Assembly (NCBI GenBank): GCA_019235415.1
Contig: JAFAKN010000538.1
Location: 1-41,083, forward strand
Length of the DNA: 41,083 nucleotides
Origin: Alphaproteobacteria bacterium
GTDB taxonomy: Bacteria; Pseudomonadota; Alphaproteobacteria; Reyranellales; Reyranellaceae
Direction: 5' to 3'
Shown here: one piece after another, positions 5,264 to 21,833 of the stretch
How the letters are laid out: every line of letters begins with the position of its first letter
How positions within the stretch are numbered: the stretch's first letter is position 1
Translations under genes and position numbers: made by a program
Notes under the pieces: model-generated
The model's database searches: none
What the model saw: only the letters and a program-made list of their open reading frames with translations
Told to the model about the DNA's origin: nothing

Positions 5264-6658
5264 TCAGTACAGTTTGACGCTGTAGTTCAGGATCACGCGC
5301 GCCTCGTTGATGGTCGTGAGCGTGTTGCTCTGGTTGACGTTGGAGGTCGCGTAACGCAACCGCAGCCAGAAGCCTGAGAGCTGCTTGATCTCCGGCCGCC
5401 AGTCGACCTCGAAGTCCCATTCGCTCTCGGTCGTCGGCGGTCCGGCCGCCGTCCCCGTCCAGCCCTGGTAAAAGAACGCCGAGGCGCCGATACCGATGAG
5501 GCCGTGCGGGGTGAACACATAGGAAGCGCCCACCACCATGGCCTGCTCGCCGGCGCGCTGGAACGACTGGATCAAGGCGTTGGTGTAGACCGGGTTGTCG
5601 CTCCACGGGTTCTGCATCGCGAAGCTCGGGCTCACCCCCGAGTAGCCGAGCGTGAGGATGCCGGTCTGGTAGCCGAGGTCCACCCGCGCGCCGACCTGGT
5701 TGGTGGCGAAGTAGCTGCCGCCGTTCAGGAGGTTGGCGCCGGTGCTGCGCTGGTCGGCGTATTGCAGGGCGAAGATCGCCCTGATGTCGTCGGTAAGCCG
5801 CGTGCCGTACTTGCCTTCGGCATAGGCGATGTTGAGCGTGTCCTGGCAATAGTACTCGACCGCGCCCAGGGAGAAGCGGCCCCAATCCATCGTGGCGCCG
5901 ACCAGGCCGACGCCGTTGTCGGCGTTGGCGCCGGCGGCGCGCGACATCGACTGGAAGACGTTGGTGTTCCTGAGCTTGATGGTCGCGAAGTAGCCGGCGC
6001 CGTAGCGCAGGCTCGGCCCGTCCTTCCAGATCTCGTCGGTGTTGCCGATCAGCGTGTAGCCGTAGAACGTGTTGGGCGTCATGCGCGTGTCGAACGGCCC
6101 GAGATAGGGCGTGTCGTAGATATGTCGGCCGGCCGTGAAGGTGAGGTTGTCGGCCAGATGAACCTTGCCGTAGAGCTCGCCGACCACGGCGTAGCCCAGC
6201 TGTCCGGGCAGCAGCAACCCGCTGCCGTCATACTGGATCGGCGCGTAGAGCGGCAGCGAGGTGTAGAGCACAGCGCCGCCGGAGATGACGTCGAACAGCC
6301 GGCCGGTCGCGAACGAGACCGCGCCGCCCGCCGCCCAGGCTTCCTGGACCTTGATCGATCCGGGCGCGTTCGTGACGGTGTCGCGATAGAAGCTGCGCGG
6401 CTGGAGGGCGATCGTCGAATCGCGCAGGAAGGCCGGCAGCTCCTGCAGCTGGCCGCGAATCTCGGGGAACAATGTCTGGGCCGGCGGCTTCTCGCGGCGG
6501 AAGGTGAGCTGGATTGCCGTCAGGTCTTCTTCGGGCGTGGCGGGGATCGGCTGTTCCTGGCGCTCGCTCTGGGCCCACGCGCTACCCGTCATAACGCTGC
6601 TAGTCATGGCGACGACAAGCGCGAGCGCGAGCCCGCGGTGCAGCCTACGGTACGCCAT
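5264..6658 (-). CDS. OprD-family outer-membrane porin
   Basis: This is a 464-residue protein with a clear signal peptide (LALALVVAMTSSVMTGSAWAQ, cut at about residue 30). The mature part has alternating beta strands rich in Tyr, Gly, Asn and aromatic residues, and a final strand ending NYSVKLY, the usual outer-membrane barrel end. N-terminal phrases such as DSTIALQPRSFYRD and GTRLTDDIRAIFALQYADQR match the substrate-specific OprD (Occ) porins, which are about 420-450 residues. It probably admits small carboxylates or amino-acid-like compounds. Its neighbours are an SDR downstream and a secreted M20 amidohydrolase upstream on the same strand, which suggests uptake and breakdown of one compound class. 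The cut site and strand count are estimates. Confidence 0.85.
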   Translation of the reverse strand: MAYRRLHRGLALALVVAMTSSVMTGSAWAQSERQEQPIPATPEEDLTAIQLTFRREKPPAQTLFPEIRGQLQELPAFLRDSTIALQPRSFYRDTVTNAPGSIKVQEAWAAGGAVSFATGRLFDVISGGAVLYTSLPLYAPIQYDGSGLLLPGQLGYAVVGELYGKVHLADNLTFTAGRHIYDTPYLGPFDTRMTPNTFYGYTLIGNTDEIWKDGPSLRYGAGYFATIKLRNTNVFQSMSRAAGANADNGVGLVGATMDWGRFSLGAVEYYCQDTLNIAYAEGKYGTRLTDDIRAIFALQYADQRSTGANLLNGGSYFATNQVGARVDLGYQTGILTLGYSGVSPSFAMQNPWSDNPVYTNALIQSFQRAGEQAMVVGASYVFTPHGLIGIGASAFFYQGWTGTAAGPPTTESEWDFEVDWRPEIKQLSGFWLRLRYATSNVNQSNTLTTINEARVILNYSVKLY

Positions 6659-6862
6659 TCCTCTGTCCCCCCGACAGATGCCGCGCGATCGTCTGTCAAG
6701 CCCGCCTCTCAGGCGACCGCACCTATGAGAAGCTTACAGTGACAGGGGGACATTGCAGAACGCTTTCATCGCTGGGAGCGCGCAACTCCAGTTGCGCTCT
6801 TCGTCGGTTGTGCCAACCAGAGCGCCACTGTACCTGCCTGCGCGAAGCCGAAGCCGCAACCG

Positions 6863-8197
6863 CTACTTCTTTTGTAGCGCATCGAGCACCACCAGGCTCA
6901 TGGCCAGGGCGCCGGCGCGGATAGTTGGCTCGGGCACCGGCGCAAACCTGGGCGAATGATTGCCCGGTAGGCTGATGTTGTTCGCCTGGGATTCGGCGAC
7001 CGCCTCGGGATCGAGCCCGCCGATGCCGAAATAGAACGACGGCACGCCTGCTTTGACGAACTCCGAATAGTCTTCGCTGGCGGTGCCGGGCGCCGAGATC
7101 TGTCGTGCCTTGTCGCCGAACGCCGCCTTCAAGACCGCGGCGCTCCTGAGGGCCAGCGTGTCGTCGTTGATCACCGCCTTTGCGCCTTCGCTCATCTTGA
7201 TCTCGGGCTCGGGGGCAGCCGCCATCATCGCCACGGCGCGGGCAGTGCGCTCGACACCCTCGATCAGCTTGGCGCGCGTGTCCTCGTCGTAGGTCCGGAT
7301 AGTGCCGCGCAAGGTCGCGGTGTCGGGAATGACGTTGCCGGCGTTGCCTGCCTCGACGGCGCCGACCGTGACGACGCCGAAGCGCGCGGCATCCTTTTCG
7401 CGGCTCACCACGCTCTGCACGTCGACGATGAAGTGGCCGGCCATCATCACCGGATCGATCGTGACGTGCGGCCGCGAGCCGTGCCCGCCCTTGCCGATGA
7501 AGGTGATGGCAAAGCCGTCGGAGGTCGAGTTGATGACGCCGGGCTTGTAGGTGACGTAGCCGAACGGGCCCGGCCCGACATGCAGGGCGAAGCCGACGTC
7601 CGGCTTGGGAAAGCGGGTGAAGATCCCGTCCTTGACCATCGCCGCCGCGCCGCCTCCGGCCTCCTCGGCCGGCTGGCCGACGAACATCAAGGTGCCGCTC
7701 CACTGGTCCTTCATCTCGATCAGCGTCTTGGCGACCGCCACCCACACCGCCATGTGGATGTCGTGGCCGCAGGCGTGCGCCACCGGCGTCTCCACGCCGC
7801 GCAGCATCTGCTTGGCGGTGCTGGCGTAGGGCAGGCCGGTCTTCTCCAGGAGCGGCAGCGCATCGAGCTCGGTGCGCACCATGACCGTCGGCCCTGCGCC
7901 GTTGCGGTAGAGCGCCACGATACCCGTCCTGCCGACGCCCTCGGTGACCTCGAAGCCCAGCCCGCGCATCTCCGCCGCGAGCTCGGCCGCCGTGCGCTTC
8001 TCCTGGAAGCTGAGCTCGGGATGGGCGTGGATGTCCTTGTACAGCGCCTCGAGGTGCGGGTACTGCGCCGTGAGGCTCTGCTCGACGGCCGCCTTGTTGG
8101 TGGCGACATCGGCCGCGCGTGCCGGTTGCCAGGCGACGGCCGGCGCCATCGCAAGCGACAAGGCGATGAGCCACAGGCGGCACGGGACGGCAGTCAT
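6863..8197 (-). CDS. Secreted M20 family amidohydrolase / metallopeptidase (M20D-like)
   Basis: This is a 444-residue protein with a signal peptide (ALSLAMAPAVAWQPARAAD, cut near residue 29). The M20 di-metal ligands are visible: HACGHDIHM with Cys and His (about 140-150), the catalytic Glu pair in GQPAEEAGGG, His in ALHVGPGPFG and a late His in GNHSPRF. The dimerisation domain carries GKGGHGSRPH. The Cys-Gly-His-Asp motif is typical of the M20D group (hippurate, N-acyl amino acid and aminobenzoyl-glutamate hydrolases). Export to the periplasm distinguishes it from the cytosolic members. It is encoded 204 bases upstream of the porin gene on the same strand. Confidence 0.92.
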   Translation of the reverse strand: MTAVPCRLWLIALSLAMAPAVAWQPARAADVATNKAAVEQSLTAQYPHLEALYKDIHAHPELSFQEKRTAAELAAEMRGLGFEVTEGVGRTGIVALYRNGAGPTVMVRTELDALPLLEKTGLPYASTAKQMLRGVETPVAHACGHDIHMAVWVAVAKTLIEMKDQWSGTLMFVGQPAEEAGGGAAAMVKDGIFTRFPKPDVGFALHVGPGPFGYVTYKPGVINSTSDGFAITFIGKGGHGSRPHVTIDPVMMAGHFIVDVQSVVSREKDAARFGVVTVGAVEAGNAGNVIPDTATLRGTIRTYDEDTRAKLIEGVERTARAVAMMAAAPEPEIKMSEGAKAVINDDTLALRSAAVLKAAFGDKARQISAPGTASEDYSEFVKAGVPSFYFGIGGLDPEAVAESQANNISLPGNHSPRFAPVPEPTIRAGALAMSLVVLDALQKK

Positions 8198-8304
8198 GCG
8201 CTTCTCCTTCTCGAGCAGACCGTGGCTCGGTTGGCCCTGCCGATCAAGCAGTGCCCGGACGCAGAAATAGTATCCGCCTATCCGACACGGCTAGCTTCCG
8301 CGGG

Positions 8305-9159
8305 ATGCGACTGGTCTGCCTTCTCGTGTGCCTTTTTTCCTGCGTCGCCGCGACCCCGGTACTGGGCGCGCCGGTCGACACCGAGCACATGTTCGGCTTC
8401 AGCGAAGGCACCGACATCGGCATACCGTTCCAGCCGGAAGTCGAGGTCGAGACGGTCGGCCGGGCCGGCAAGTCGGATGGCAGCTTTCTCGCGCTGGCCA
8501 CCACCGCCAGCCTGAAATATCCGCTGTCGCGTCAGTTCCGTATCGCGCCCGAGATCGCCGTCTCGAGCTACAATGTTTCGGGCGTCCCGGACTTTCCCGA
8601 TGCGTCCGAGTTCGTGTTCGATCGCGCCGCCCTGGAATTCCGCTGGCATCCGCTGGCCTGGGAGACCAACCCGTTCGGCCTGACGTTCGTGGCGACGCCG
8701 TTCTACGGCCCGATCGATCCGGCCACCGGCACCGGCGCCGACAATTACGGTATCGAGTTCATCGCCGCGATGGACCGCCCCCTAATCGCCGACAAGCTGT
8801 TCGCCGCAATAAACCTGCTCTACACGCTCGACCGAACGCGGCCCTGGGGCGGCAACGCGACCATCGACAGCTCGGTCCTGGGTGTCAGCACGGCGGCCTC
8901 GCTGCGCGTCCTGCCCTGGCTGTTCGTCGGCGCCGAGGTCCGTTATCTGCAGGCCTATAACGGCCTGGCTCTGGTCGGTCTCACCGACCAGGCGCTGTAC
9001 GTCGGCCCGACCTTCTACTTGACCTTGGGCCGGCATGCCTCGCTCTCGGGCGCCTTCGAGCCGCAGGCCTGGGGCTCGCTCACCGGTTACCCAACGGGCC
9101 TCGATCTGGTGGCCTTCGATCGCCAGCAATTCAAGCTGCGCCTGGCGATCGACCTGTAG
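8305..9159 (+). CDS. Outer-membrane beta-barrel protein of unknown function
   Basis: I choose the ATG at 8305 because it begins a proper signal peptide (MRLVCLLVCLFSCVAATPVLG-AP). An upstream in-frame ATG at 8251 would add 18 residues before it. The 284-residue protein then has alternating strands with repeated Gly and aromatic residues (SLKYPLSRQFRIAPEIAVS, ALEFRWHPLAWETNPFG, LFVGAEVRYLQAYNGLAL) and ends QFKLRLAIDL, as a barrel end. No catalytic motif is visible, so this is a porin-like or structural outer-membrane protein. It is divergent from the M20 gene, with a 107-base shared upstream region, and a palindromic repeat follows 36 bases after its stop. Confidence 0.7.
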   Translation: MRLVCLLVCLFSCVAATPVLGAPVDTEHMFGFSEGTDIGIPFQPEVEVETVGRAGKSDGSFLALATTASLKYPLSRQFRIAPEIAVSSYNVSGVPDFPDASEFVFDRAALEFRWHPLAWETNPFGLTFVATPFYGPIDPATGTGADNYGIEFIAAMDRPLIADKLFAAINLLYTLDRTRPWGGNATIDSSVLGVSTAASLRVLPWLFVGAEVRYLQAYNGLALVGLTDQALYVGPTFYLTLGRHASLSGAFEPQAWGSLTGYPTGLDLVAFDRQQFKLRLAIDL

Positions 9160-9195
9160 CTCTCATTGGAGCGCGGACCTCCCGGTCCGCTTTCT

Positions 9196-9266
9196 GTCAT
9201 CCCGAGGCCGCAGGCCGAGGGATCCGTCCTGCTGCCTCAAGGATCCCTCGCTGCGCTCGGGATGAC
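9196..9266. repeat. Intergenic palindromic repeat, copy 1
   Basis: The outer arms GTCATCCCGAG and CTCGGGATGAC are perfect inverted repeats; the inner arms GAGGGATCC and GGATCCCTC are also perfect. It sits between the barrel gene and the MFS gene. It belongs to the family at 23816, 25442, 26431, 27801 and 37986. Confidence 0.9.
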
Positions 9267-9295
9267 ATGGAGGTTCACAGCTCTGTCATCGGTGT

Positions 9296-10477
9296 ATGCT
9301 GCGGCCGATGAGCCGGTTCTTCACCGTCGTCGTGCTGGGCTCGACACAGACCTTGGCCTGGGCGTCGAGCTACTACCTGCCGGCCGTGCTGGCAGACCGC
9401 ATGGCGGCCGAGCTCGGGCTGTCGACCAACTGGATCTTCGGCGTGTTCTCCGGCTCGCTGGTGCTGACCGCCGTGATGGGCCCCAAGGTTGGCCGCACCA
9501 TCGACGCGCTGGGCGGCAACGGCGTGCTGGCCGGCTCCAACCTCCTGTTCGCGCTCGGGCTCGTGCTGCTGGCCCTGGCCCATTCGCTGCCGCTGTTCAT
9601 CGCCGCCTGGATCGCGCTGGCGATCGGCATGGGGCTCGGCCTCTACGATTCGGCCTTTGGCGCACTCGGCCGCCTCTATGGCAGCGACGCGCGCGGCGCC
9701 ATCACCGGCATCACCCTGATCGCGGGTTTCGCCAGCACCATTGGCTGGCCATTGACGGCCTGGGGCGCGGCCACGATTGGCTGGCGCGAGACCTGCCTCG
9801 CCTGGGCCGCAGCCCACCTGCTGCTCGGCCTGCCGGCCAACTGGTTCCTGCTGCCGCGCCCTGCGGTTGCGACCCCGGCCGAGCGGGCCGCGCTGCAAGC
9901 CGTGCGCATCCCGATCGAGCGCCGCATGGTCCTGCTGGCCTTCGCCTTCGCCGCCGCCTGGCTGGTGACCGCCGGCATGGCCGCTCACTTCCCGCGCATC
10001 CTCGAGGCGGCTGGCGCCACGCCCGCCGAGGCGATCGCCGCGGGAGCCTTGATCGGTCCGGCCCAGGTTGGCGCGCGGCTTCTCGAAATGGGACCGCTGG
10101 CCCGGCTGCATCCGCTGATCACGGCGCGGCTCGCCGCGCTCACCCATCCGCTGGGCGCGGCGCTGCTGCTGGTGACGGGGGCGGGCGGGGTGATGTCGGG
10201 CGTCTTCGCGTTGCTGCATGGTTCGGGCAACGGCATCCTCACCATCGCGCGCGGCAGCGTCCCGCTCGCGCTGTTCGGCCCCGAGAACTACGGCTATCGG
10301 CTGGGCCTTTTAGGCGCGCCCGCCCGCTTCCTGCAGGCCGCCGCGCCGTTCGCCTTCTCGCTCTTGCTCGAGCATCTGGGCGGGGACGTGCTGTTCGTCT
10401 CCGCAGCCCTCAGCCTCTCGGCCTGCGCCGCCTTCTGCCTGCTCGCCATCCCACACGCACCGGCCCGCGCCGCCTGA
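9296..10477 (+). CDS. MFS transporter
   Basis: This 393-residue integral membrane protein has about 12 hydrophobic segments and the typical MFS organisation of two bundles with a basic central loop (IPIERR at about residue 205). The motif-A region reads MGPKVGRTIDALGG between segments 2 and 3, where the usual G-x3-D-R-x-G-R is only partly kept. It starts at ATG 9296 or, twelve bases later, at ATG 9308; neither has a clear ribosome site, perhaps because the palindromic repeat ends only 29 bases upstream. Substrate is unknown. It converges with the phosphoesterase gene with 45 bases between stops. Confidence 0.85.
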   Translation: MLRPMSRFFTVVVLGSTQTLAWASSYYLPAVLADRMAAELGLSTNWIFGVFSGSLVLTAVMGPKVGRTIDALGGNGVLAGSNLLFALGLVLLALAHSLPLFIAAWIALAIGMGLGLYDSAFGALGRLYGSDARGAITGITLIAGFASTIGWPLTAWGAATIGWRETCLAWAAAHLLLGLPANWFLLPRPAVATPAERAALQAVRIPIERRMVLLAFAFAAAWLVTAGMAAHFPRILEAAGATPAEAIAAGALIGPAQVGARLLEMGPLARLHPLITARLAALTHPLGAALLLVTGAGGVMSGVFALLHGSGNGILTIARGSVPLALFGPENYGYRLGLLGAPARFLQAAAPFAFSLLLEHLGGDVLFVSAALSLSACAAFCLLAIPHAPARAA

Positions 10478-10522
10478 GTTTTTCGCCCGGCAGCGGCGCG
10501 CGCGGCGTGTGGCGTGCGCCGG

Positions 10523-12100
10523 CTACTTGCGCGTCCGGCGCGCCTTGCCCGCGGCCCGCTTGGCCGTCTTGCTCGCGGAACGTGGCGCCGTCTTGCCCGC
10601 GGCCCGCGGCGCCGTCTTGGTCGTCGCCGGCTGCGCTGGACGGCGCGGCGCCTGTTGCGCCACGGCGGCGCGCCGCTTGTGCTGCCGAGCGCGATGCTCG
10701 ACCCACGCCGCGGTGCGGTTCTGGATGTACTCGCCGACCTGCCCCGAGGTCGTGAATGGCGGCGGCTCGTGCGCGTAGCTGCCCTGCGGGTTGCGCACCG
10801 GCAGCGCGGCAACCTTCTCGGCGTGCAGCAGCTCGAGCGTCGAGGGTCGCGCGTGGTTGGGATGCTGGCCGCTCGAGCGCGGTGGCTCGAGGCCCTTCAG
10901 GACGTCGTCGTCGCGCGGCGCGGCGAGCGTCAGCACGTCGCCCAGGCTGGGCGCCGCCGCGTCGCGCTTGGTCAGGGGCTTGGTCTGGAACCGCTCGCTC
11001 AGCGTTTTCAGCACCGAGGTGTGGTCGACCACGCCCTGGGCCGGACGGAACACCGAGCCCTTCTGGATTAAGGGTGAGATCAGGAGTGCCGGGATGCGCA
11101 CGCCGAAGCGGTCGAACTTGAAGTTGAACTCGCCCACCGAATCGTCGGGCGCCACCGCGCCGTAGGGTGGCGCGACATGGTCGAAGTTGCCGCCGTGCTC
11201 GTCGTAGGTGATGAGCAGCAGCGTTTCGTTCCAGCCCGGGCCGTCGCGCAGCGCGCGATAAGTGTCGTGGATCAGCTGCTCGCCCAGCGCCACGTCATAG
11301 TTGGGATGCTGGCTGTTGCCCGACGAGCTCCAGCTCGGCTCGAGAAACGTGTAGGGCGGCAGCGTGCCCTTGGCCGCCCGTTCCTGGAAGTCGCGGAAGT
11401 GGCCGAAGTGGCTTTCCTCGGCGTGCAGCGTGTCGGGGAAGTCGTGGCGTGTGAGCGGCGGCGCGTTGTAGCCGAAGATCGCCCAGTCCTGCTGCGCGTC
11501 CGTCAGGCGGCCGAAGATGCTCGGGCAGGTGAACACCTTGACCTTGTTGTCGAGATGACCCTGCGAGGTGCCGGCCGCCGCGAAGGCGCGGTTGGGAATG
11601 GTCTGGGTCGGCGCCGAGGCGAACCAGCGGTCGCATACCGCGTAGCCCCGCGCCAGCGCCGACATGATGGGCAGCGTTTCCGGCGCGTACATGCCCATGA
11701 CCTGGGTCGCCGCCGTGTTGGGCAGCGTGTCGCCGTAGTGATGCGACAGGTCGTAATTAATCGCCGCCTGGAAGTTCACGATGAAGCCGTCGTTGGTCGG
11801 CGGCTGGTTGGGCGCCGGGTCGTCGCTGCGGAACAACTGGTAGTTGGTATTGTGGAAGCCTTCGCCGGGATCGGCACCGGGCATCAGGTAGCAATGCGCC
11901 GCATCGGGCGTGATCTTGAACACCTTGGTCTTGCGTTCCGCGGCGTCGGGATTCCATTCCTCGCCCGTCAGGCCGTCGTAGGCGTCGCCGGAAAGCGAGC
12001 GGTTGCCGGCGTCCGTGTAGAGGAAGCCGAGCATCTGGTCGAAGGTGCGGTTCTCCAGCATCAGCTGGACCACGTGGTTGATCTTGCGCAGCTGGGACAT
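10523..12100 (-). CDS. Phosphoesterase family protein (phospholipase C / acid phosphatase type) with basic tail
   Basis: The first 430 residues form a PF04185 phosphoesterase. The N-terminal metal-site motif is MLENRTFDQMLG (about residues 14-25), followed by PNRAFAAAGTSQGH and the metal-binding ITYDEHGGNFDHVAPP near 305-320. I set the start at ATG 12100 because GGAGAGGG lies five bases upstream; the earlier ATG at 12115 would place that site inside the gene. Two features are unusual. There is no signal peptide, whereas most relatives are exported. The last 60 or so residues are almost only Ala, Lys, Arg, Thr and Pro (KTAPRAAGKTAPRSASKTAK), resembling histone H1-like or nucleoid tails. The tail could bind polyanions or be an unstructured linker. 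Confidence 0.88.
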   Translation of the reverse strand: MSQLRKINHVVQLMLENRTFDQMLGFLYTDAGNRSLSGDAYDGLTGEEWNPDAAERKTKVFKITPDAAHCYLMPGADPGEGFHNTNYQLFRSDDPAPNQPPTNDGFIVNFQAAINYDLSHHYGDTLPNTAATQVMGMYAPETLPIMSALARGYAVCDRWFASAPTQTIPNRAFAAAGTSQGHLDNKVKVFTCPSIFGRLTDAQQDWAIFGYNAPPLTRHDFPDTLHAEESHFGHFRDFQERAAKGTLPPYTFLEPSWSSSGNSQHPNYDVALGEQLIHDTYRALRDGPGWNETLLLITYDEHGGNFDHVAPPYGAVAPDDSVGEFNFKFDRFGVRIPALLISPLIQKGSVFRPAQGVVDHTSVLKTLSERFQTKPLTKRDAAAPSLGDVLTLAAPRDDDVLKGLEPPRSSGQHPNHARPSTLELLHAEKVAALPVRNPQGSYAHEPPPFTTSGQVGEYIQNRTAAWVEHRARQHKRRAAVAQQAPRRPAQPATTKTAPRAAGKTAPRSASKTAKRAAGKARRTRK

Positions 12101-15563: not shown

Positions 15564-16310
15564 TCAGTACATGACGTCGCCGCCGTTGGGCGACAGGGTC
15601 GCGCCGACATAGAAGCCGCCGTCCGGACCGGCCAGCAGCAGCGCGGTCGCGGCGATCTCCTCCGGCCGGCCGAAGCGGCCGACCGGCAGCGCGTCGATGA
15701 AGGCCTGGCGGTCCGCTTCGGTCATGGTCGCCGTGAGGTCGGTGACGATCGGGCCCGGCGCGATGGCGTTGACGCGGATGCCTTTGGGTGTCGCTTCCCA
15801 GGCGAGCGCGCGCGTAAAACCCATGATCGCCGCCTTGGCGGCGGAGTAGGGTGCGGAGTTCACCGCGCCCTTGAGCCCGCGCTGCGAGGCGACGTTGATG
15901 ATGCAGCCGCTGCCGCGCGCCACCATCGCCGGATAGACCGCCTGCGCCATGAAGAACATGCCCTTGAGATGCACCGCCACGATGCGGTCGAACTCCGCCT
16001 CGGTGAAGTCCTCGAACGGCTTGCGGATGTTGATGCCGGCGTTGTTGAACAGGATGTCGATCGGCCCCAGGGCGCGCGCCGCCTCTTCGGCGAAAACCCG
16101 GCCCGCGGCGATGTCGGCGACGTCCACCGAGCGGTGCATCGCGCGCCGGCCCAGCGCTTGGATCTCGCCCGCGGTCTCTTGGGCCTTGGCGTCGTCGTTC
16201 AGATGGCAGAAGGCGATGTCGCAGCCCTCGGCTGCGAAGGCCAGCGCCGTGGCGCGGCCGATGCCGCGCGACCCGCCCGTGACAAGGGCGATCTTGTCGC
16301 TGAGCTTCAT
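15564..16310 (-). CDS. SDR family oxidoreductase
   Basis: This 248-residue classical SDR has TGGSRGIGRATA (about residues 11-22), a strand-2 end with HLNDD, NNAGIN, Ser in INVASQRG, YSAAK (Tyr-x3-Lys) and the C-terminal NAIAPGPIVTD. It resembles 3-oxoacyl-ACP/CoA reductases of the FabG type. Its ATG overlaps the TGA of the upstream hotdog thioesterase gene (ATGA), so the two are co-translated and probably act on the same acyl-CoA or acyl-ACP intermediates. It ends with GGDVMY rather than the usual GGxxM. Exact substrate is unknown. Confidence 0.93.
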   Translation of the reverse strand: MKLSDKIALVTGGSRGIGRATALAFAAEGCDIAFCHLNDDAKAQETAGEIQALGRRAMHRSVDVADIAAGRVFAEEAARALGPIDILFNNAGINIRKPFEDFTEAEFDRIVAVHLKGMFFMAQAVYPAMVARGSGCIINVASQRGLKGAVNSAPYSAAKAAIMGFTRALAWEATPKGIRVNAIAPGPIVTDLTATMTEADRQAFIDALPVGRFGRPEEIAATALLLAGPDGGFYVGATLSPNGGDVMY

Positions 16311-16675
16311 GCTTTGCGCTGGATCGCCACGATGGCGCGTCGATGGGTGCCTTCGCCCACCTTCTTGTCCTCGTCGTGCGCCTCGACCTTGAAGCGGAGC
16401 TTGCGACCGTCGACCTCGAGCAGCTCGGCCCGCACGGTCACCTTCTTGCCCTTGGGCGTGGCGCCGAAGTGCTTGACGTTGACCTCGAAACCCACCGTCG
16501 TGTGGCCTTCGGGCAGATGCGACTGCACGGCCTGGATGCCGGCCCGTTCCATCAGGCCGATCATCGACGGCGTCGAGAGCACGCCGTCGCCGCCCATGTG
16601 CGTGACCACCAGCTTGTCGTCGACCGTCGTGACGATCTCCGCCTCGAGTCCCGGTGTAAGGCCGGTGGTCGGCAT
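16307..16675 (-). CDS. Hotdog-fold thioesterase, FlK-like
   Basis: This 122-residue single-domain hotdog protein opens MPTTGLTPGLEAEI, then VVTHMGGDGVLSTPSMIGLMERAG with the long central helix and Glu43, followed by VNVKHFGATPKG and the final strands LRFKVEAHDEDKKVGEGTHRRAIV. The Thr-Pro-x4-LMExA arrangement matches the fluoroacetyl-CoA thioesterase (FlK)-like family, many of which act on other acyl-CoAs. It is cytosolic. It is coupled to the SDR gene through an ATGA overlap and the pair forms a two-gene operon. Confidence 0.85.
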   Translation of the reverse strand: MPTTGLTPGLEAEIVTTVDDKLVVTHMGGDGVLSTPSMIGLMERAGIQAVQSHLPEGHTTVGFEVNVKHFGATPKGKKVTVRAELLEVDGRKLRFKVEAHDEDKKVGEGTHRRAIVAIQRKA

Positions 16676-16836: not shown

Positions 16837-17136
16837 GTGAATGTTTCCGCAACCACGATGCCTCCGTCTGGCGAGTCTACAAAAGACCAGGCAATGGATT
16901 CCTTGGCCAAAGCCGTCGCCGACGCGGCCGAAAGCGTCAACCAGAAACACCTTGGGGTGGCTGGAGATGCGATCGGCGAGGCGGGTCTCATCGCGCGCGC
17001 CAGTTACAACGCGGCCTACGCGCTCGCCTTCACCGTGGTCTATCCGTTCGCGTTTGTGGCGCAGTGGTTGCCGCAGGACAATCCCGTGATGCACGGCCTG
17101 CGTGACGGCGCCGCGGCAGTGCTGAAGCGGATCTGA
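16837..17136 (+). CDS. Small protein, paralogue of 20940-21254, with hydrophobic centre
   Basis: This 99-residue protein starts at GTG 16837 (GAGGG about ten bases upstream). The layout is MNVSATTMPPSG, a charged Ala-rich helix (MDSLAKAVADAAESV), a hydrophobic YNAAYALAFTVVYPFAFVAQ segment at about 57-76, then the conserved LPQDNPVMHGLRDGAAA. The same start (M-x-x-ATTMP), centre and end recur in the protein at 20940-21254, so the two are paralogues. They sit at opposite ends of the P-type ATPase block and face into it. There is one predicted membrane segment, perhaps a hairpin. I do not recognise a named family. Confidence 0.7.
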   Translation: MNVSATTMPPSGESTKDQAMDSLAKAVADAAESVNQKHLGVAGDAIGEAGLIARASYNAAYALAFTVVYPFAFVAQWLPQDNPVMHGLRDGAAAVLKRI

Positions 17137-17181
17137 CCCGTAGGGACGCCTGCGACCGGAGGTAGCCAGCCGTTCGGCGCG

Positions 17182-17565
17182 TCATGACGAGTTCGAGCGC
17201 GGCCGGGGATAGCGTCGTTCCAGATCGTCGAGCCAACGGCCGACATGCTTGAGGCCGGTGTGCACGAGCCCCTTTGGCTTGTCCTTGGCCAGGCGTGCCA
17301 GGAGCTCTGGTCCGCCCGGTGCGAGCACCGCCGTCCCGGCGAGAATGAACGGGGTGCCGGGGATGCCGGGGAGGATGACCCCGATAACGCCGACCGAGAC
17401 CATCAGCCAGCCGATGTCGCGCGGCAAGGCGGCGAAGCGCCGGATGACCTCGTCGTACGCGGCCCCCCCATCCGCCGTCGGGCCGGTCTGCGGCTCTCCT
17501 GGCGCAGCCGAATCCGCCCCTCCTTGCGAATGTCCCGGCTGCGAAGGTGGCAGCTCGCGGGCCAT
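17182..17565 (-). CDS. Small membrane protein with PGIPGTP motif
   Basis: This 127-residue protein has a 30-residue Gly/Pro/Ala-rich, probably disordered N-terminus, a short helix (DEVIRRFAALPRD) and then a hydrophobic hairpin: IGWLMVSVGVIGVILPGIPGTP and FILAGTAVLAPGGPELL. The LPG-IPG turn between two membrane segments is seen in the YbaN/DUF454 and PGPGW-type small inner-membrane proteins; the assignment to either is uncertain. The C-terminus is basic. It is the last gene of the minus-strand ATPase operon, four bases after its upstream neighbour. Confidence 0.65.
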   Translation of the reverse strand: MARELPPSQPGHSQGGADSAAPGEPQTGPTADGGAAYDEVIRRFAALPRDIGWLMVSVGVIGVILPGIPGTPFILAGTAVLAPGGPELLARLAKDKPKGLVHTGLKHVGRWLDDLERRYPRPRSNSS

Positions 17566-17569
17566 CGGG

Positions 17570-17791
17570 CTAAACGGCCGCTGGCTCTCGATAGGGGCGG
17601 ATCACGCCGCGCTGCACCAATTCTTCGAGGTGCTCCGCCATCAGGGTGGAGTCGGGACCGAGCACGTAGAACAGGTCCTGCAGCTTCTTTCGCCGCCGAT
17701 TGATCGCATAGCCGAGGTAGATGAGCACGGCAGCGGTCCCTACCGCCGCAATGACCTCGGTGAAGGACCCGAACCAACGATCGAACACCAT
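17570..17791 (-). CDS. Small membrane protein with one N-terminal TM helix
   Basis: This 73-residue protein has a single membrane segment at about 10-30 (FTEVIAAVGTAAVLIYLGYAI), directly followed by the positively charged NRRRKK, which places the C-terminus in the cytoplasm. The tail (LFYVLGPDSTLMAEHLEELVQRGVI) looks like a short helical domain, and LMAEHLEELVQRGVIRPY resembles the end of a winged-helix or SHOCT-like short domain. It lies between the 17833 gene (41 bases) and the 17182 gene (4 bases) and belongs to the same transcript. Function is unknown. Confidence 0.6.
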   Translation of the reverse strand: MVFDRWFGSFTEVIAAVGTAAVLIYLGYAINRRRKKLQDLFYVLGPDSTLMAEHLEELVQRGVIRPYREPAAV

Positions 17792-17832
17792 GCTTTCTCT
17801 CCTGGCTCTCCTGGGTTCTCGCAGTGTCCGCG

Positions 17833-18336
17833 CTAGTCGATTATCTTATTGTGTTCGCGACCGGCGATGATCTGTATCGCGCCGGCGAGACCCTCGCGTT
17901 GCAGGTTCTCACGGACCAGCCTGTCGATATCCCCTGCGTTGCGATTCGTAATGAGGAAACGCGCGAACATCCTCAAGGCTGCAAGGATCTGATCCTCGGT
18001 GTCCAGAATGCCGAGATGCAGGCGGAAGCCATGGGTGTGCTTGATCCGGGTCCGATGGCGCGGGCGCAGGTCGTGCACGGCGATGATCGGATCGCGGCCG
18101 ACCTGCAGCGGGTAGTAGCGCAACAGGGCGATCGACGTCGGCTGATCGAGAACGAAGAGCTCGTCGTCGAGGTAGAGATCGCTGATCATGTTGAGGTGCT
18201 CTTGCACCACCTTGCTCGCCATGGCGTTCCAGCCGGTGTCGATGACGAAGATGTGGAACCGCGGGTTCTTGGTCTTGCCCGTCGCCGCTGCCGTAGACTT
18301 TATGAGCTCCATCGCTTGGGCGCTCTTGGTCTTCAT
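17833..18336 (-). CDS. Soluble protein of unknown function coupled to the P-type ATPase
   Basis: The 167-residue protein begins at ATG 18336, overlapping the TGA of the ATPase gene (ATGA), so it is made in step with the pump. There is no signal peptide or membrane segment. It has alternating hydrophobic strands and helices (PRFHIFVIDTGWNAMASKVVQ, LFVLDQPTSIALLRYYPLQVG, DPIIAVHDLRP) that suggest an alpha/beta fold. His-rich bits are visible (RFHIF, RPRHR, IKHTHGFRLHLG), so metal binding is possible, though no compact site is evident. I do not recognise a family. The coupling and stoichiometry suggest an accessory, chaperone or regulatory partner of the ATPase. Confidence 0.75.
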   Translation of the reverse strand: MKTKSAQAMELIKSTAAATGKTKNPRFHIFVIDTGWNAMASKVVQEHLNMISDLYLDDELFVLDQPTSIALLRYYPLQVGRDPIIAVHDLRPRHRTRIKHTHGFRLHLGILDTEDQILAALRMFARFLITNRNAGDIDRLVRENLQREGLAGAIQIIAGREHNKIID

Positions 18337-20852
18337 GCGTATTCCCCTGCGGAAAAGCCGCTTTGGCGCAATTGCAGTTCGAGCAGATGGCGCCGCTCGG
18401 CTTCGGACGCGGCGACCTTTCGCATGGGCCGCACGCCATTGAGCAGCGCGCCGAGCGCCGCAACGTTGTTCGTCAGGACCGAGGCACCGATCCCGAAGCC
18501 GAGCGTGAACACGCCTGCGATGCACGCGATGTTGGGCGCCAGGATCAGGCCCCAGCTCAGGCGCACATTGCGCTGCAGCTCTGCCGCGACATCGAGCAGC
18601 TCGCAGAGCTTGCCGAGGCCGGGCTCCATGAACACCACGTGCGCGGTGTCGGTCGCGATCGAGGTGGCCCCGCGCAGCGAGATCGAGACGTTGGCCTTCT
18701 TCAAGGCGATGGCGTCGTTGATGCCGTCGCCGACGAAGCAGACCTTGCGGCCTTCCTGCTGCAGCTTCTCGACGTAGTCGGCCTTTTCCGTCGGCAGGAC
18801 CTGCGCGAAATAGCGGTCGATGCCGAGCGCCGCGGCGAGCTTCCGGGTCGGCGCCTCATGGTCGCCGGAAATGATCGCGATCTGCCGGATGCCGCGGGCG
18901 CGCAGCCCCTTGATGATTTCCGGCACCTCGGGGCGGATCGAGGCGCGCAGCTCCAGCGCCCCGCCAAGCTCGTCGTCGACCGCCACCATCACCATGCTGT
19001 GGCCCTCGCGATGGGCCGCTTCGAGGGCGGCCGTGACCTCCGGCGTCAGCGCGATGCCCTCCAGCTCCATGAAGCGGCGGCTGCCGACACGGATCCTGTG
19101 CCGGTCGACGCCGACCGAGATGCCGTGGCCGATGCTGTATTGCGCGTGGTCGATGGCGGGAAGGTCGAGCCGTTCCTCCTCTGCCTTCTGCAGGATGGCG
19201 CGTGCGATCGGATGATGGAATCTGTGCTCCGCAGCGGCGGCGTAGCGCAAAATGTCGATCGCGCTGTGCCCGTTGGCCGCGACGATTCTGCCGACCTCCG
19301 GGCGCTCGCGGGTCAGCGTGCCGGTCTTGTCGAACAGGACGGTGTCGACCTCGCACAAGAGGTCCAGCGCTCGGCCGTCCTTCACCAGCACGCCGCGTTG
19401 CGAGCATAGCGCCAGGGTCGAGAGCATGGCGAGCGGCGCCGCCATCCGGATGCCGGTGCCCATGTCGCTGTTGAGCACGGCGGCCGCGCCCTGCGGCCCA
19501 ATCGTGCCGAGCGCCAGCCCGCCGACCGCGAGCGTCGGGACAACCGCCTGGTCGGCCAGCTGCTCGCCTTTTTGCTGCGAGGCAAGCCTGTAGCCCGCGG
19601 TGTCGTTCAGGATCTGCGCGATCTTCGCTGTCGTGGTCGCCTCACCTGACCGCTCGACCGAGACGAAGATTTTGCCCGCCACCACGATTGTGGACGCGAA
19701 CGCTTGGTCGCCGATCCCCTTCTCGGCGGGCGTCGATTCGCCGGTCAGGGTGTGCTGGTCGATCATCGCCAACCCCTCGACGATGACGCCGTCGGCCGGC
19801 ACCATGTCGCCGGTATTCACCGCCACGATGTCGCCCTGCTTCAGCTTGGCGAGCGGGGCCTGGATCTCCTGGCCATCGATCAGCAGCCAGACGAAGCGCG
19901 GCTGCTTGCCGAACGCGCCGAGCAGCATCTTCTTCGAACGATCCTCGGTGCGCCCGACCAGGAAACGCCCGAAGGAGAGGCACCAGCACAGGATGGTGCC
20001 GGCGAAGACCTCCCCGGTTCCCAGGCAGGCCAGCACGACCACCGCATCGAGCACGTCGACGCCGAGCCGCCGCTCCTTCGTGAGCACGTTCCAGGCGCCC
20101 TTGAAAGTCGGCAGCGCGGTGTAGGCGAACAGCAGCCCGGCCGGCGGCAGCAGCGCCGGGACCGCGAACTGCGCCGCCGCGGCGAGCGGCACCGAGACCG
20201 TGCAGATCGTGAGCTCGCGATTGATCTTGTCGAGCCGGTCGGGATGGTCCGTCGCGGCCAGCGCCGTGTCGAGCATCTCGACGAGCTCGGCGAGGCTGAT
20301 CTGCCGTGGGTCGTACTCGATGTCGACCCGGGACTTGAGGGCGTCGGTGTTATAGCGGCTCACCCCCAGCGCGCTCATCAGCTCGCGCTCGATCGCCTCG
20401 CACAGCGCGCGCTTGCGGTACAGCACCGGGTTGGTGAGCCTGACGCTGCCGACCCGCTCGCGCTCGGCGCGCCATCCCGTGACACGGCCGGCATAGCGCC
20501 TGTAGCGCACCACGCCGTGACGGTTGAGCGCGGTTGCGGGCGCGGCCACGGCCATCGGGTCGTCGATAACCTTGCCGAGGGCCAGGGCCAGCTGGTTCAG
20601 TATCTGCTTCAGGCCGGACCGCGGTAAGTTGTAGCGCAGGTCCACGCAATGCTTGCGCGCCGGCGTGAATGTTGCCGATCTGATCGCCGGCAGCCGCAGC
20701 GCCGCCTGGAGGAACCGTCGACACGGCTCCCCGTCCAGCGTGGCAAACAGCGTCGCGTCCCGGATCCGGATGATTCCGGTTTCGGGGAATGTCACCCTGA
20801 TGCCGGCTGGTACCTTCACGCCGGGCCCGGCCGTCATCGCGTCGCCAAGCAT
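18333..20852 (-). CDS. P1B-like P-type ATPase lacking the CPC motif
   Basis: The 839-residue protein has all catalytic cytosolic motifs: LTGES (369-373), the phosphorylated Asp508 in FDKTGT, the P1B-type His-Pro pair (547-548) in HHPIARAI, and GDGIND (708-713). Eight-helix P1B topology fits, with the N-terminal 200 residues forming two HMA-like beta/alpha domains that lack CxxC. The key oddity is in the membrane segment that normally carries CPC or SPC. Spacing back from Pro473 and GVLVK places Met-Gly-Thr (464-466, in NSDMGTGIRMAAP) at the CPC position, so the usual thiolate ligands are absent. The transported ion is therefore not predictable, and copper is unlikely. The start at 20852 has CAGGAGAG upstream. 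It is coupled to 17833-18336 and lies in a five-gene minus-strand run with 20940-21254. Confidence 0.9.
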   Translation of the reverse strand: MLGDAMTAGPGVKVPAGIRVTFPETGIIRIRDATLFATLDGEPCRRFLQAALRLPAIRSATFTPARKHCVDLRYNLPRSGLKQILNQLALALGKVIDDPMAVAAPATALNRHGVVRYRRYAGRVTGWRAERERVGSVRLTNPVLYRKRALCEAIERELMSALGVSRYNTDALKSRVDIEYDPRQISLAELVEMLDTALAATDHPDRLDKINRELTICTVSVPLAAAAQFAVPALLPPAGLLFAYTALPTFKGAWNVLTKERRLGVDVLDAVVVLACLGTGEVFAGTILCWCLSFGRFLVGRTEDRSKKMLLGAFGKQPRFVWLLIDGQEIQAPLAKLKQGDIVAVNTGDMVPADGVIVEGLAMIDQHTLTGESTPAEKGIGDQAFASTIVVAGKIFVSVERSGEATTTAKIAQILNDTAGYRLASQQKGEQLADQAVVPTLAVGGLALGTIGPQGAAAVLNSDMGTGIRMAAPLAMLSTLALCSQRGVLVKDGRALDLLCEVDTVLFDKTGTLTRERPEVGRIVAANGHSAIDILRYAAAAEHRFHHPIARAILQKAEEERLDLPAIDHAQYSIGHGISVGVDRHRIRVGSRRFMELEGIALTPEVTAALEAAHREGHSMVMVAVDDELGGALELRASIRPEVPEIIKGLRARGIRQIAIISGDHEAPTRKLAAALGIDRYFAQVLPTEKADYVEKLQQEGRKVCFVGDGINDAIALKKANVSISLRGATSIATDTAHVVFMEPGLGKLCELLDVAAELQRNVRLSWGLILAPNIACIAGVFTLGFGIGASVLTNNVAALGALLNGVRPMRKVAASEAERRHLLELQLRQSGFSAGEYA

Positions 20853-20939
20853 CGCTTACTCTCCTGACCGCGCGCACTCGCCTGACCGCGCCGGCAACGG
20901 AACAGCCGCGCACGGTTGCCCGCGGTCGGCGTGCGGCGA

Positions 20940-21254
20940 TCAGGCGCCGTTCACCGAATCCATTGCCGCGTCGGCACCGTCGCGGAACCCGTGCATAACC
21001 GGGTTATCCCTCGGCAACAACTGCGTCACGAACACCGCCGTGTAGACGATGCCAAAGGAAAGCGCGTATGCGGTGCTGTAGGTCAAGCGCGACAGCATCC
21101 GGACGGGTCCGGAATCGGCAATCGCATCCTTCATCGCGGTCGCGTGCTGGGCGGCGCTGTTCGCCGCATCGCGCATCGCATCGGCCATGGAATCCCTCAC
21201 CTGTTCGGCCGTCGGCGCGTCGTCGACCGGCATCGTCGTTGCGGCAATACTCAT
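20940..21254 (-). CDS. Small protein, paralogue of 16837-17136
   Basis: This 104-residue protein starts at ATG 21254 (AGAGAGACC upstream). It opens MSIAATTMPVDDAP, has a charged helical region with paired Ala (DSMADAMRDAANSAAQ), the hydrophobic STAYALSFGIVYTAVFVTQ at about 60-80, and LPRDNPVMHGFRDGADAA. Start, centre and end match the protein at 16837-17136, about 40 percent identical by eye in the last half. It lies 87 bases upstream of the ATPase gene on the same strand and is likely the first gene of that operon. One membrane segment or hairpin is predicted. Function is unknown. Confidence 0.72.
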   Translation of the reverse strand: MSIAATTMPVDDAPTAEQVRDSMADAMRDAANSAAQHATAMKDAIADSGPVRMLSRLTYSTAYALSFGIVYTAVFVTQLLPRDNPVMHGFRDGADAAMDSVNGA

Positions 21255-21398
21255 CGGTGGTCTCTCTAGAACGTCTCTGTTCCGGTGAAAGCTAGGACCG
21301 GACGATGAATATATCGTGTCACTGCGGATGCAAGGTTCGGGTGGAGCGCGGAACTTCCGGCCCGCATCATGGTAATGAGCGGGGAAGGTGAAGAAGCC

Positions 21399-21833
21399 AT
21401 GCAGCAAGCCCGAGCCACCCTGACAGTGCGCGCCGAACGGCAGGGGCTGGTCGAAATCACCGGCCGGATCGCGGCGTGGCTCGCCGCGCAGAAGCTGGGC
21501 GACGGCCTCTTGACGGTCTTCATCCGCCACACCTCGGCCTCGCTGCTCATCCAGGAGAACGTCGATTCCGACGTGCAGCGCGACCTGGAAAGCTTCCTGA
21601 TGAAGCTCGTGCCAGAATCCGACACCGCCTTCCGGCATGACGCCGAGGGGCCGGACGACATGCCGGCCCACATCAAGGGCGCGCTGACCCAGACCCAGCT
21701 TGGCGTTCCCGTGGCCGGCGGACACCTGATGCTCGGCCAGTACCAGGGCATCTTCCTGTTCGAGCACCGCCGCACGCCGCGCCCGCGCGAGATCGTCCTG
21801 CATTTCATCGGCGACAAGCCGTCGCCCCCCTGA
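21399..21833 (+). CDS. yjbQ: YjbQ / UPF0047 family protein
   Basis: This protein of 144 residues uses the ATG at 21399 (GAAGGTGAAG upstream); the in-frame ATG codons at 21369 and 21375 would translate the ribosome site itself. The family motifs are HTSASLLIQENVDSDVQRDL, then HDAEGPDDMPAHIKGAL and the closing GTYQG-like GQYQGIFLFEHR, with conserved His residues forming a putative metal site. YjbQ proteins are small trimeric enzymes; E. coli YjbQ has been reported to have weak thiamine phosphate synthase activity, and the physiological role is open. It stands alone, divergent from the ATPase cluster. Confidence 0.92.
   Translation: MQQARATLTVRAERQGLVEITGRIAAWLAAQKLGDGLLTVFIRHTSASLLIQENVDSDVQRDLESFLMKLVPESDTAFRHDAEGPDDMPAHIKGALTQTQLGVPVAGGHLMLGQYQGIFLFEHRRTPRPREIVLHFIGDKPSPP

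What the first reader, a model, noticed from the sequence alone, without database searches (positions are those of the whole stretch)
16837..21254. Undescribed-looking locus: CPC-less P1B ATPase coupled to an unknown soluble protein and bracketed by two paralogous small proteins
A P1B-type pump keeps TGES, DKTGT, HP and GDGIND but reads Met-Gly-Thr where CPC/SPC/TPC normally binds the metal in the membrane. It overlaps (ATGA) a 167-residue His-containing soluble protein, is followed by two small membrane proteins, and is flanked on both sides by ~100-residue proteins sharing M-x-x-ATTMP and LP-x-DNPVMHG-x-RDGA. The combination suggests a transport system with a different ion or purpose, where the small proteins act as subunits, adaptors or a compartment component.
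Basis: partly seen in the sequence, partly recalled or inferred. Interest (0 to 1): 0.72.

Follow-up and report, generated by a model that had tools for sequence, protein, structure and literature searches.

The report
Metal-pump cluster with odd metal site
A bacterial gene cluster encodes a metal-type ion pump whose usual sulphur-based metal site is replaced by another motif, kept beside a private family of small membrane proteins and, in most relatives, beside a second pump copy that has lost its catalytic motifs; it looks like a rare, undescribed cousin of the pumps linked to bacterial iron-storage vesicles.

Summary
An 839-aa P1B-type ATPase (18333-20852, -) keeps TGES, DKTGT, HP and GDGIND, and its CPC position reads Met-Gly-Thr. 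It overlaps Sol167 by ATGA and is bracketed by two ~100-aa paralogues (46% identical). The reading is a clade trait: all 15 members found, from alpha-proteobacteria, an acidobacterium and planctomycetes, read D-[M/L/F]-GTGIR and form one branch. The small family occurs in 14 of 14 genomes with this pump (3 of the 14 gave no row to the profile) and in none of 288 other alpha-proteobacteria.

New: in 9 of 15 loci a second ATPase homologue lies near the pump; 2 more genomes hold one on another contig. None of these 11 has DKTG or GDGxND. Its modelled fold is still P1B (Z 26.9) and dN/dS is about 0.2. The window lacks it.

The pump is related to, but lacks the HN signature of, P1B6 pumps, the class (recalled) of ferrosome FezB. 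I infer a hard-cation (Fe2+ or Mn2+) pump complex held or housed by the small proteins. Substrate and compartment are untested.

The parts
20940..21254 (-). Sm104, 104-aa small protein, first gene of the row; Ala-rich N-terminal half, one hydrophobic stretch, tail LPxDNPVMHGxRDGA
   Evidence: no Pfam match
18333..20852 (-). ATPase1, 839-aa P1B-type ATPase, MGT clade
   Evidence: TIGR01525 409 bits, cut-off 346; motifs; clade
19455..19463 (-). codons ATG GGC ACC for M464-G465-T466 at the CPC position
   Evidence: HMMER alignment to CopA; letters checked
17833..18336 (-). Sol167, 167-aa soluble protein, ATGA overlap with ATPase1; modelled as weakly thioredoxin-like; no Cys
17570..17791 (-). TM73, 73-aa protein with one hydrophobic stretch (residues 12-30)
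17182..17565 (-). DUF454-family membrane protein, 127 aa; in relatives it follows the catalytically dead ATPase
   Evidence: PF04304 36.1 bits, cut-off 35.1
16837..17136 (+). Sm99, paralogue of Sm104, convergent with the row
   Evidence: 46% identity to Sm104

Best explanation
The locus encodes a multi-part pump for a hard divalent cation, most likely Fe2+ (Mn2+ second). ATPase1 uses the normal phosphorylation cycle of P1B pumps (its motifs are shown) to move the ion out of the cytosol across a membrane, through a site built from Asp, Asn and Thr side chains and backbone (invariant N461, D463, T466, N774, N795) instead of thiolates (inferred). The Sm proteins collect or stabilise the pump in a membrane patch or vesicle, as PacL does for CtpC in mycobacteria (inferred by analogy). 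In most relatives a dead twin of the pump is a further membrane subunit (inferred). Sol167, TM73 and DUF454 are accessory parts that come and go between lineages (presence and absence shown, role inferred). Whether the ion ends in an internal vesicle (ferrosome-like) or outside the cell is not decided by sequence. The pump is a relative of P1B6 pumps, not a member by the HN test.
For: Intact catalytic motifs, no CPC. dN/dS 0.20 against L001's genome. 15 members of one branch (SH-aLRT 99) share D[MLF]GTGIR. N461, D463, T466, R469, N774 and N795 invariant in 14 rows. None of the five small window proteins has Cys. Sm in 14 of 14 genomes with the pump, 19 of 22 hits beside it, and in none of 288 other class genomes. 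The same wider group (SH-aLRT 100) holds pumps with the P1B6 signature HN (signature from PMC9374683). Nramp-family (Mn/Fe importer, recalled) genes near 2 of the loci. PacL as analogue: small membrane protein that holds a P1B pump in foci (PMC9374683, abstract and passages).
Against: No metal was shown. Nramp is near 2 of 15 loci only. No Fur-type box was recognised upstream. Sm has no sequence link to PacL: no Pfam match. HN is not met, and HN also occurs in a CPC pump (L120), so it is not a clean marker. D[MLF]GTGIR is also read by L020, L067 and L021, outside the branch. The window lacks the dead twin. The fez link of the HN/DYSC pumps is inferred, not matched to a named Fez sequence.
Confidence: 0.45

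Rival explanations
1. Plasma-membrane efflux platform: the ATPase expels a toxic divalent metal from the cell and Sm is a PacL-like chaperone and scaffold. No vesicle is formed.
For: P1B pumps are usually exporters (recalled); PacL1 and CtpC form membrane foci and high-molecular-weight complexes (PMC9374683); Sm is small, Ala-rich (20-21%) and usually directly upstream of the pump (13 of 15 loci).
Against: [quoted passage not shown] I saw neither named for Sm, and its conserved part is the hydrophobic stretch and tail. The related HN/DYSC pumps look like ferrosome genes.
Confidence: 0.3
2. A ferrosome-like storage compartment: the pump fills a membrane vesicle with iron, and Sm, TM73 and DUF454 shape the vesicle.
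For: Same wider clade as the HN/DYSC pumps that sit in a fez-like row of small genes beside a Fur-family gene in phototrophic genomes of about 5 Mb. EcsC occurs both in planctomycete MGT loci and in the YGTG clusters, so the clusters share parts.
Against: None of the small genes of the window matches DUF4405 (FezC, as named in PMC10979944) or HMA_2 in Pfam; no Fur-family gene among the window genes annotated.
Confidence: 0.25
3. The substrate is not a transition metal (for example Mg2+, another cation or an organic cation) and the metal-pump likeness is inheritance only.
For: No thiol, His or Met pair in the M4 motif of most members; CPC is the usual metal-site motif. A P-type ATPase with altered motifs, ERMA, is described as a Mg2+ pump (PMC13322241, passages).
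Against: TIGR01525 heavy-metal family match; relation to HN-bearing pumps.
Confidence: 0.15
4. MGT marks a decaying or foreign P1B gene, or a contaminating contig, with no special meaning.
For: None of the 64 other sampled genomes of the genus has it; the assembly has 768 contigs and 4.55% contamination.
Against: The motif is fixed in a branch spanning phyla and dN/dS is 0.20. A foreign origin would change the host, not the feature.
Confidence: 0.05

Closest known systems
P1B6-ATPases and ferrosome FezB (six fez genes of Rhodopseudomonas palustris, RPA2333-2338)
   Same: P1B pump, same wider clade as HN-bearing pumps, no CPC, pump in a row with small membrane proteins. That FezB is a P1B6 pump is recalled; the six fez genes are from PMC12016538 (passage).
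   Different: NN or NQ instead of HN, GT instead of SC after D-x; Sm, Sol167, TM73, DUF454 instead of HMA_2-like small proteins; dead twin in most relatives
PacL1-CtpC metal-efflux platform of mycobacteria
   Same: small membrane protein encoded directly beside a P1B pump, proposed scaffold (PMC9374683, abstract and passages)
   Different: no DUF1490 match, no Cys, and CtpC keeps CPC
YGTG-type pump clusters (DUF5132, HMA_2, ATPase, EcsC, DUF445), a second cluster in the window's own genome
   Same: D-x-GTGIR at the CPC position; EcsC also in planctomycete MGT loci
   Different: own branch (SH-aLRT 95), SN in TM6 in 7 of 8, HMA_2 and DUF5132 partners, no Sm by profile in the six loci tested
ERMA (TMEM94), ER Mg2+ ATPase, compared with the dead twins of the relatives
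   Same: P-type fold with altered TGES and GDGVND motifs (PMC13322241, passages)
   Different: ERMA keeps DKQGI with an Asp needed for Mg2+ uptake; the twins have no DKTG (0 of 11) and sit near an active paralogue

Membership tests
P1B-type ATPase | heavy-metal P-type ATPase profile and TGES, DKTGT, HP, GDGIND | tested here: met
   TIGR01525 409 bits over cut-off 346; motifs
P1B-type ATPase | CPC-type motif (CPC, SPC, TPC, CPH) in M4 | tested here: not met
   MGT at the position, no such motif elsewhere
P1B6-ATPase | HN motif in TM6 (PMC9374683) | tested here: not met
   NN in 11 and NQ in 2 of the 13 MGT rows that reach it
P1B6-ATPase | falls inside the clade of HN-bearing, CPC-less pumps | tested here: not met
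   DYSC/HN is a separate branch (SH-aLRT 97); MGT lies outside it but in the same wider clade (100); quick tree with long-branch warnings
Ferrosome (fez) system | homologues of the Fez proteins | tested here: inconclusive
   no named Fez sequence could be fetched; no DUF4405 or HMA_2 match in the small window proteins
Ferrosome (fez) system | forms membrane-bounded iron granules | not testable with these tools
   needs electron microscopy
PacL (DUF1490) or DUF6110 small proteins | Pfam match of Sm99 or Sm104 | tested here: not met
   0 Pfam families for Sm99 and Sm104 up to E = 1; HMMER's filters limit such weak searches
Thioredoxin-like fold (Sol167) | structural match standing above background | tested here: inconclusive
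   best Z 7.2, within the background range named by the tool; pLDDT 70.9
Thioredoxin-like fold (Sol167) | redox CxxC | tested here: not met
   Sol167 has no Cys

The most novel reading that the evidence does not exclude
A pump family that works as a two-ATPase machine: an active MGT-type P1B pump and a conserved, catalytically dead twin form a hetero-complex with a private small scaffold family (Sm), building a metal-storing membrane compartment of a kind other than the fez ferrosome. The window carries a reduced version without the twin.
Probability: 0.2. Interest if true: 0.85.

Novelty: new variant of a known kind. Interest (0 to 1): 0.58.

Why it matters
P1B6 pumps are called poorly characterised in the one paper I saw on them (PMC9374683), yet ferrosome formation in C. 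difficile needs the transporter FezB (PMC12574912, passage). A related branch with a different ion site, its own small-protein family and, in most relatives, a motif-less ATPase twin makes three questions testable: what can replace thiolates in a metal pump, what the small proteins of such clusters do, and whether dead P-type ATPases serve as subunits. My searches found no paper on this cluster or on a dead P1B partner, but they cover only an open-licence library and list at most 20 papers each.

Tried and rejected
Rejected: that MGT is an alignment slip or a decaying gene. Rejected: that the window row is simply a fez operon; HN is absent and the partners differ. Not supported: Nramp as a regular part (2 of 15 loci; the profile was built from those two); a protein in L106 that I first took for Nramp is an amino-acid permease. 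Led nowhere: regulator boxes upstream of the Sm genes; the fold of Sol167 beyond weak thioredoxin-like matches (folds not listed there are not excluded). Paper searches for dead P-type ATPases, EcsC, DUF454 or DUF5132 beside pumps gave nothing on the point. Grant 2022, Pi 2023 and Smith 2014 are not held; what is said of them is recalled or comes from passages of other papers. Foldseek's own table was not run for the dead twin, only VIA-align on Foldseek's top chains (the best row has rmsd 12.8).

Limits: large genome samples scored only the best candidates per genome (2-3, up to 15, up to 11), so absences there are not absolute. The Sm profile was built from 14 rows of 11 of the 14 genomes it was then tested on, and the Sol167 profile from six loci. 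Three loci end inside or just after ATPase1 (L002, L004, L007). The tree is a 'quick' one with long-branch warnings, above all for the dead twins.
Full report
What is there. The window holds a compact - strand row, Sm104 - ATPase1 - Sol167 - TM73 - DUF454 (21254 down to 17182), with a second copy of the small protein, Sm99, on the + strand at its far end. ATPase1 overlaps Sol167 by ATGA. ATPase1 matches the heavy-metal P1B model TIGR01525 at 409 bits (cut-off 346) and its catalytic motifs are intact. HMMER's alignment to the solved CopA places M464-G465-T466 on CPC, and CPC, SPC, TPC, CPH and PCP occur nowhere else in it. Sm99 and Sm104 are 46% identical (E about 1e-26) and match no Pfam family.

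The MGT reading is a clade trait. One scan of genome contigs gave 12 loci with relatives at 56-81% identity (best segment): five alpha-proteobacterial, one acidobacterial and six planctomycete, all MAGs. A sample of 296 genomes from the family of L001's host added two (L105, L106). All 15 members including the window read D[MLF]GTGIR where CPC would be and form one branch (SH-aLRT 99). The motif is not exclusive: L020, L067 and L021, outside the branch, read it too. Invariant polar residues in the membrane part (14 rows; truncated L002 left out) include N461, D463, T466 and R469 in M4, S766 and N774 around M5, and N795 in M6. None of the five small window proteins has a cysteine. This speaks for a hard cation; it does not prove one.

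Rarity. An MGT-branch pump was found in 1 of 75 sampled family genomes (the own one; the 64 other members of the genus have none), in 1 of 385 class genomes (the own one), and in 1 of 294 and 1 of 247 genomes sampled around the planctomycete and acidobacterial hosts, each time the genome already known. The other matches in these samples read YGTG, DYSC or odd motifs. More distant relatives stand without the partner families (L066 at 40%, L067 at 38%) or with an Sm-like gene (46%, plasmid of Methylobacterium radiotolerans). The Acidobacteriales locus lies among alpha-proteobacterial ones in the tree, which suggests horizontal transfer.

The company it keeps. A profile of the Sm family hit 14 of 14 genomes with an MGT pump, 22 hits. 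Its rows came from 11 of those genomes; the 3 that gave none (G105, G1117, G1228) were hit at E 1e-20 to 6e-18. Of the 22 hits, 19 lie beside the pump. The exceptions: one on another contig of G102, one near the start of another contig of G106 (whose pump contig ends inside the pump gene), and one about 12 kb from the pump in G1117. In 289 class genomes only the window's own had Sm, and only its own had Sol167. By profile, of 15 loci: Sm upstream of the pump in 13; an Sm on the far side in 6 (window, L005, L006, L008, L012, L106); DUF454 in 8, plus 2 on other contigs of the same genomes; Sol167 and TM73 in 6 of the 12 whose contigs reach that place; EcsC in 4 planctomycete loci plus one on another contig; Nramp in 2 (L003, L011).

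The dead twin. In 9 of 15 loci (L003, L005, L006, L008, L009, L011, L012, L105, L106) a second ATPase homologue lies near the pump: directly downstream, or after Sol167 and TM73, in seven; divergent in L105 and about 3 kb away in L106. In two more genomes one lies on another contig (G105 full length, G102 a fragment). In L009 it is short. None of the 11 has DKTG or GDGxND. In the six full-length ones aligned, TGES and HP are also lost at their columns, while RPDY is invariant at the CPC position and the last TM helices stay recognisable; RPDY is missing in L105. In L005, L006 and L012 the pump's stop and the twin's start overlap by four bases. The twin of L005 is modelled (pLDDT 75.4, pTM 0.59) with N-terminal alpha/beta domains, long helices and the beta-rich parts expected of A, P and N domains; its best structural matches are P1B pumps (7r0g, Z 26.9, 547 residues, rmsd 12.8). 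dN/dS is 0.19 between the close pair L028 and L012, and 0.22 between L005 and L008, where synonymous sites are near saturation: a maintained gene, not a relic. The window, L001 and one of the two Rhodopila loci (L010) lack it although their contigs go on, and no full-length twin was found elsewhere in the window's genome. The window thus holds a form without the twin, and is itself no evidence for it.

Place among known pumps. The tree puts MGT pumps, dead twins, YGTG pumps and DYSC pumps in one clade (100) apart from CPC/CPH pumps and an AGAC group; the root itself is weak (14). A paper names a conserved HN motif in TM6 as a feature of P1B6 pumps (PMC9374683, passage). The DYSC rows have HN in 13 of 13 (two are identical); MGT rows have NN in 11 and NQ in 2 of the 13 that reach it; YGTG rows have SN in 7 and NN in 1. 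One CPC pump (L120) also has HN, so the motif alone is not decisive. Four DYSC pumps (L101-L104) come from genomes of 5.0-5.3 Mb with photosynthetic reaction-centre genes. As read in L101 and L102 they end a row of small genes, two of them HMA_2-like in L101 (one below the Pfam cut-off), with a Fur-family gene on the other side. R. palustris CGA009 is reported to make ferrosomes from six fez genes (PMC12016538, passage). I infer that this row is fez; I could not fetch a named Fez sequence. By the HN test the window's pump is not a P1B6 pump, but it is a relative.

How it most likely works. Shown: a P1B pump with intact catalytic motifs and a non-thiol M4 motif, under purifying selection, tied to a private small-protein family. 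Inferred: the ion (Fe2+ first, Mn2+ second), the scaffold role of Sm by analogy with PacL, the subunit role of the twin, and the accessory roles of Sol167, TM73 and DUF454. Sol167 is modelled as thioredoxin-like, but the match is weak and there is no cysteine. Open: storage vesicle or efflux.

Verdict. Real, rare, conserved and, in the open-licence papers searched, not described. It is a new variant of P1B6-like pump clusters rather than a new kind. The dead twin is the most surprising part, and it lies in the relatives.

Noticed in passing
L017 (G000:C51), 5271-12056: The window's genome has a second CPC-less pump cluster, carbonic anhydrase - DUF5132 - HMA_2 - YGTG ATPase - EcsC - DUF445, conserved in two other genomes of the genus (L018, L019).
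   Followed up: partly
L010 3189-11297: In a Rhodopila MAG the YGTG cluster (- strand) and an MGT cluster (+ strand) lie back to back, a few hundred bases apart.
   Followed up: partly
L009 11416-13179: A short dead-ATPase version (588-aa open frame) with a clear HMA_2 match and RPDY but no E1-E2 ATPase match in Pfam.
   Followed up: no
L106 8297-8635; L105 10239-10670: A 112- to 143-aa gene directly upstream of the pump in both loci, no Pfam match for the L106 one; possibly another private small family.
   Followed up: no
window 21255-21404, and the same place in L001 and L002: A promoter-like block with TGACAC and a G/C-rich spacer is shared upstream of Sm104 and its orthologues by eye; no regulator box was recognised.
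   Followed up: no
window 16307-16675 and 15567-16292: A FlK-type (fluoroacetyl-CoA-specific) thioesterase next to a short-chain dehydrogenase.
   Followed up: no
L070, L073: Genomes sampled around a planctomycete host carry DYSC/HN pumps with small neighbour genes starting MSIINKTRTY or MNIINKTKTY, a possible small-protein family of their own.
   Followed up: no
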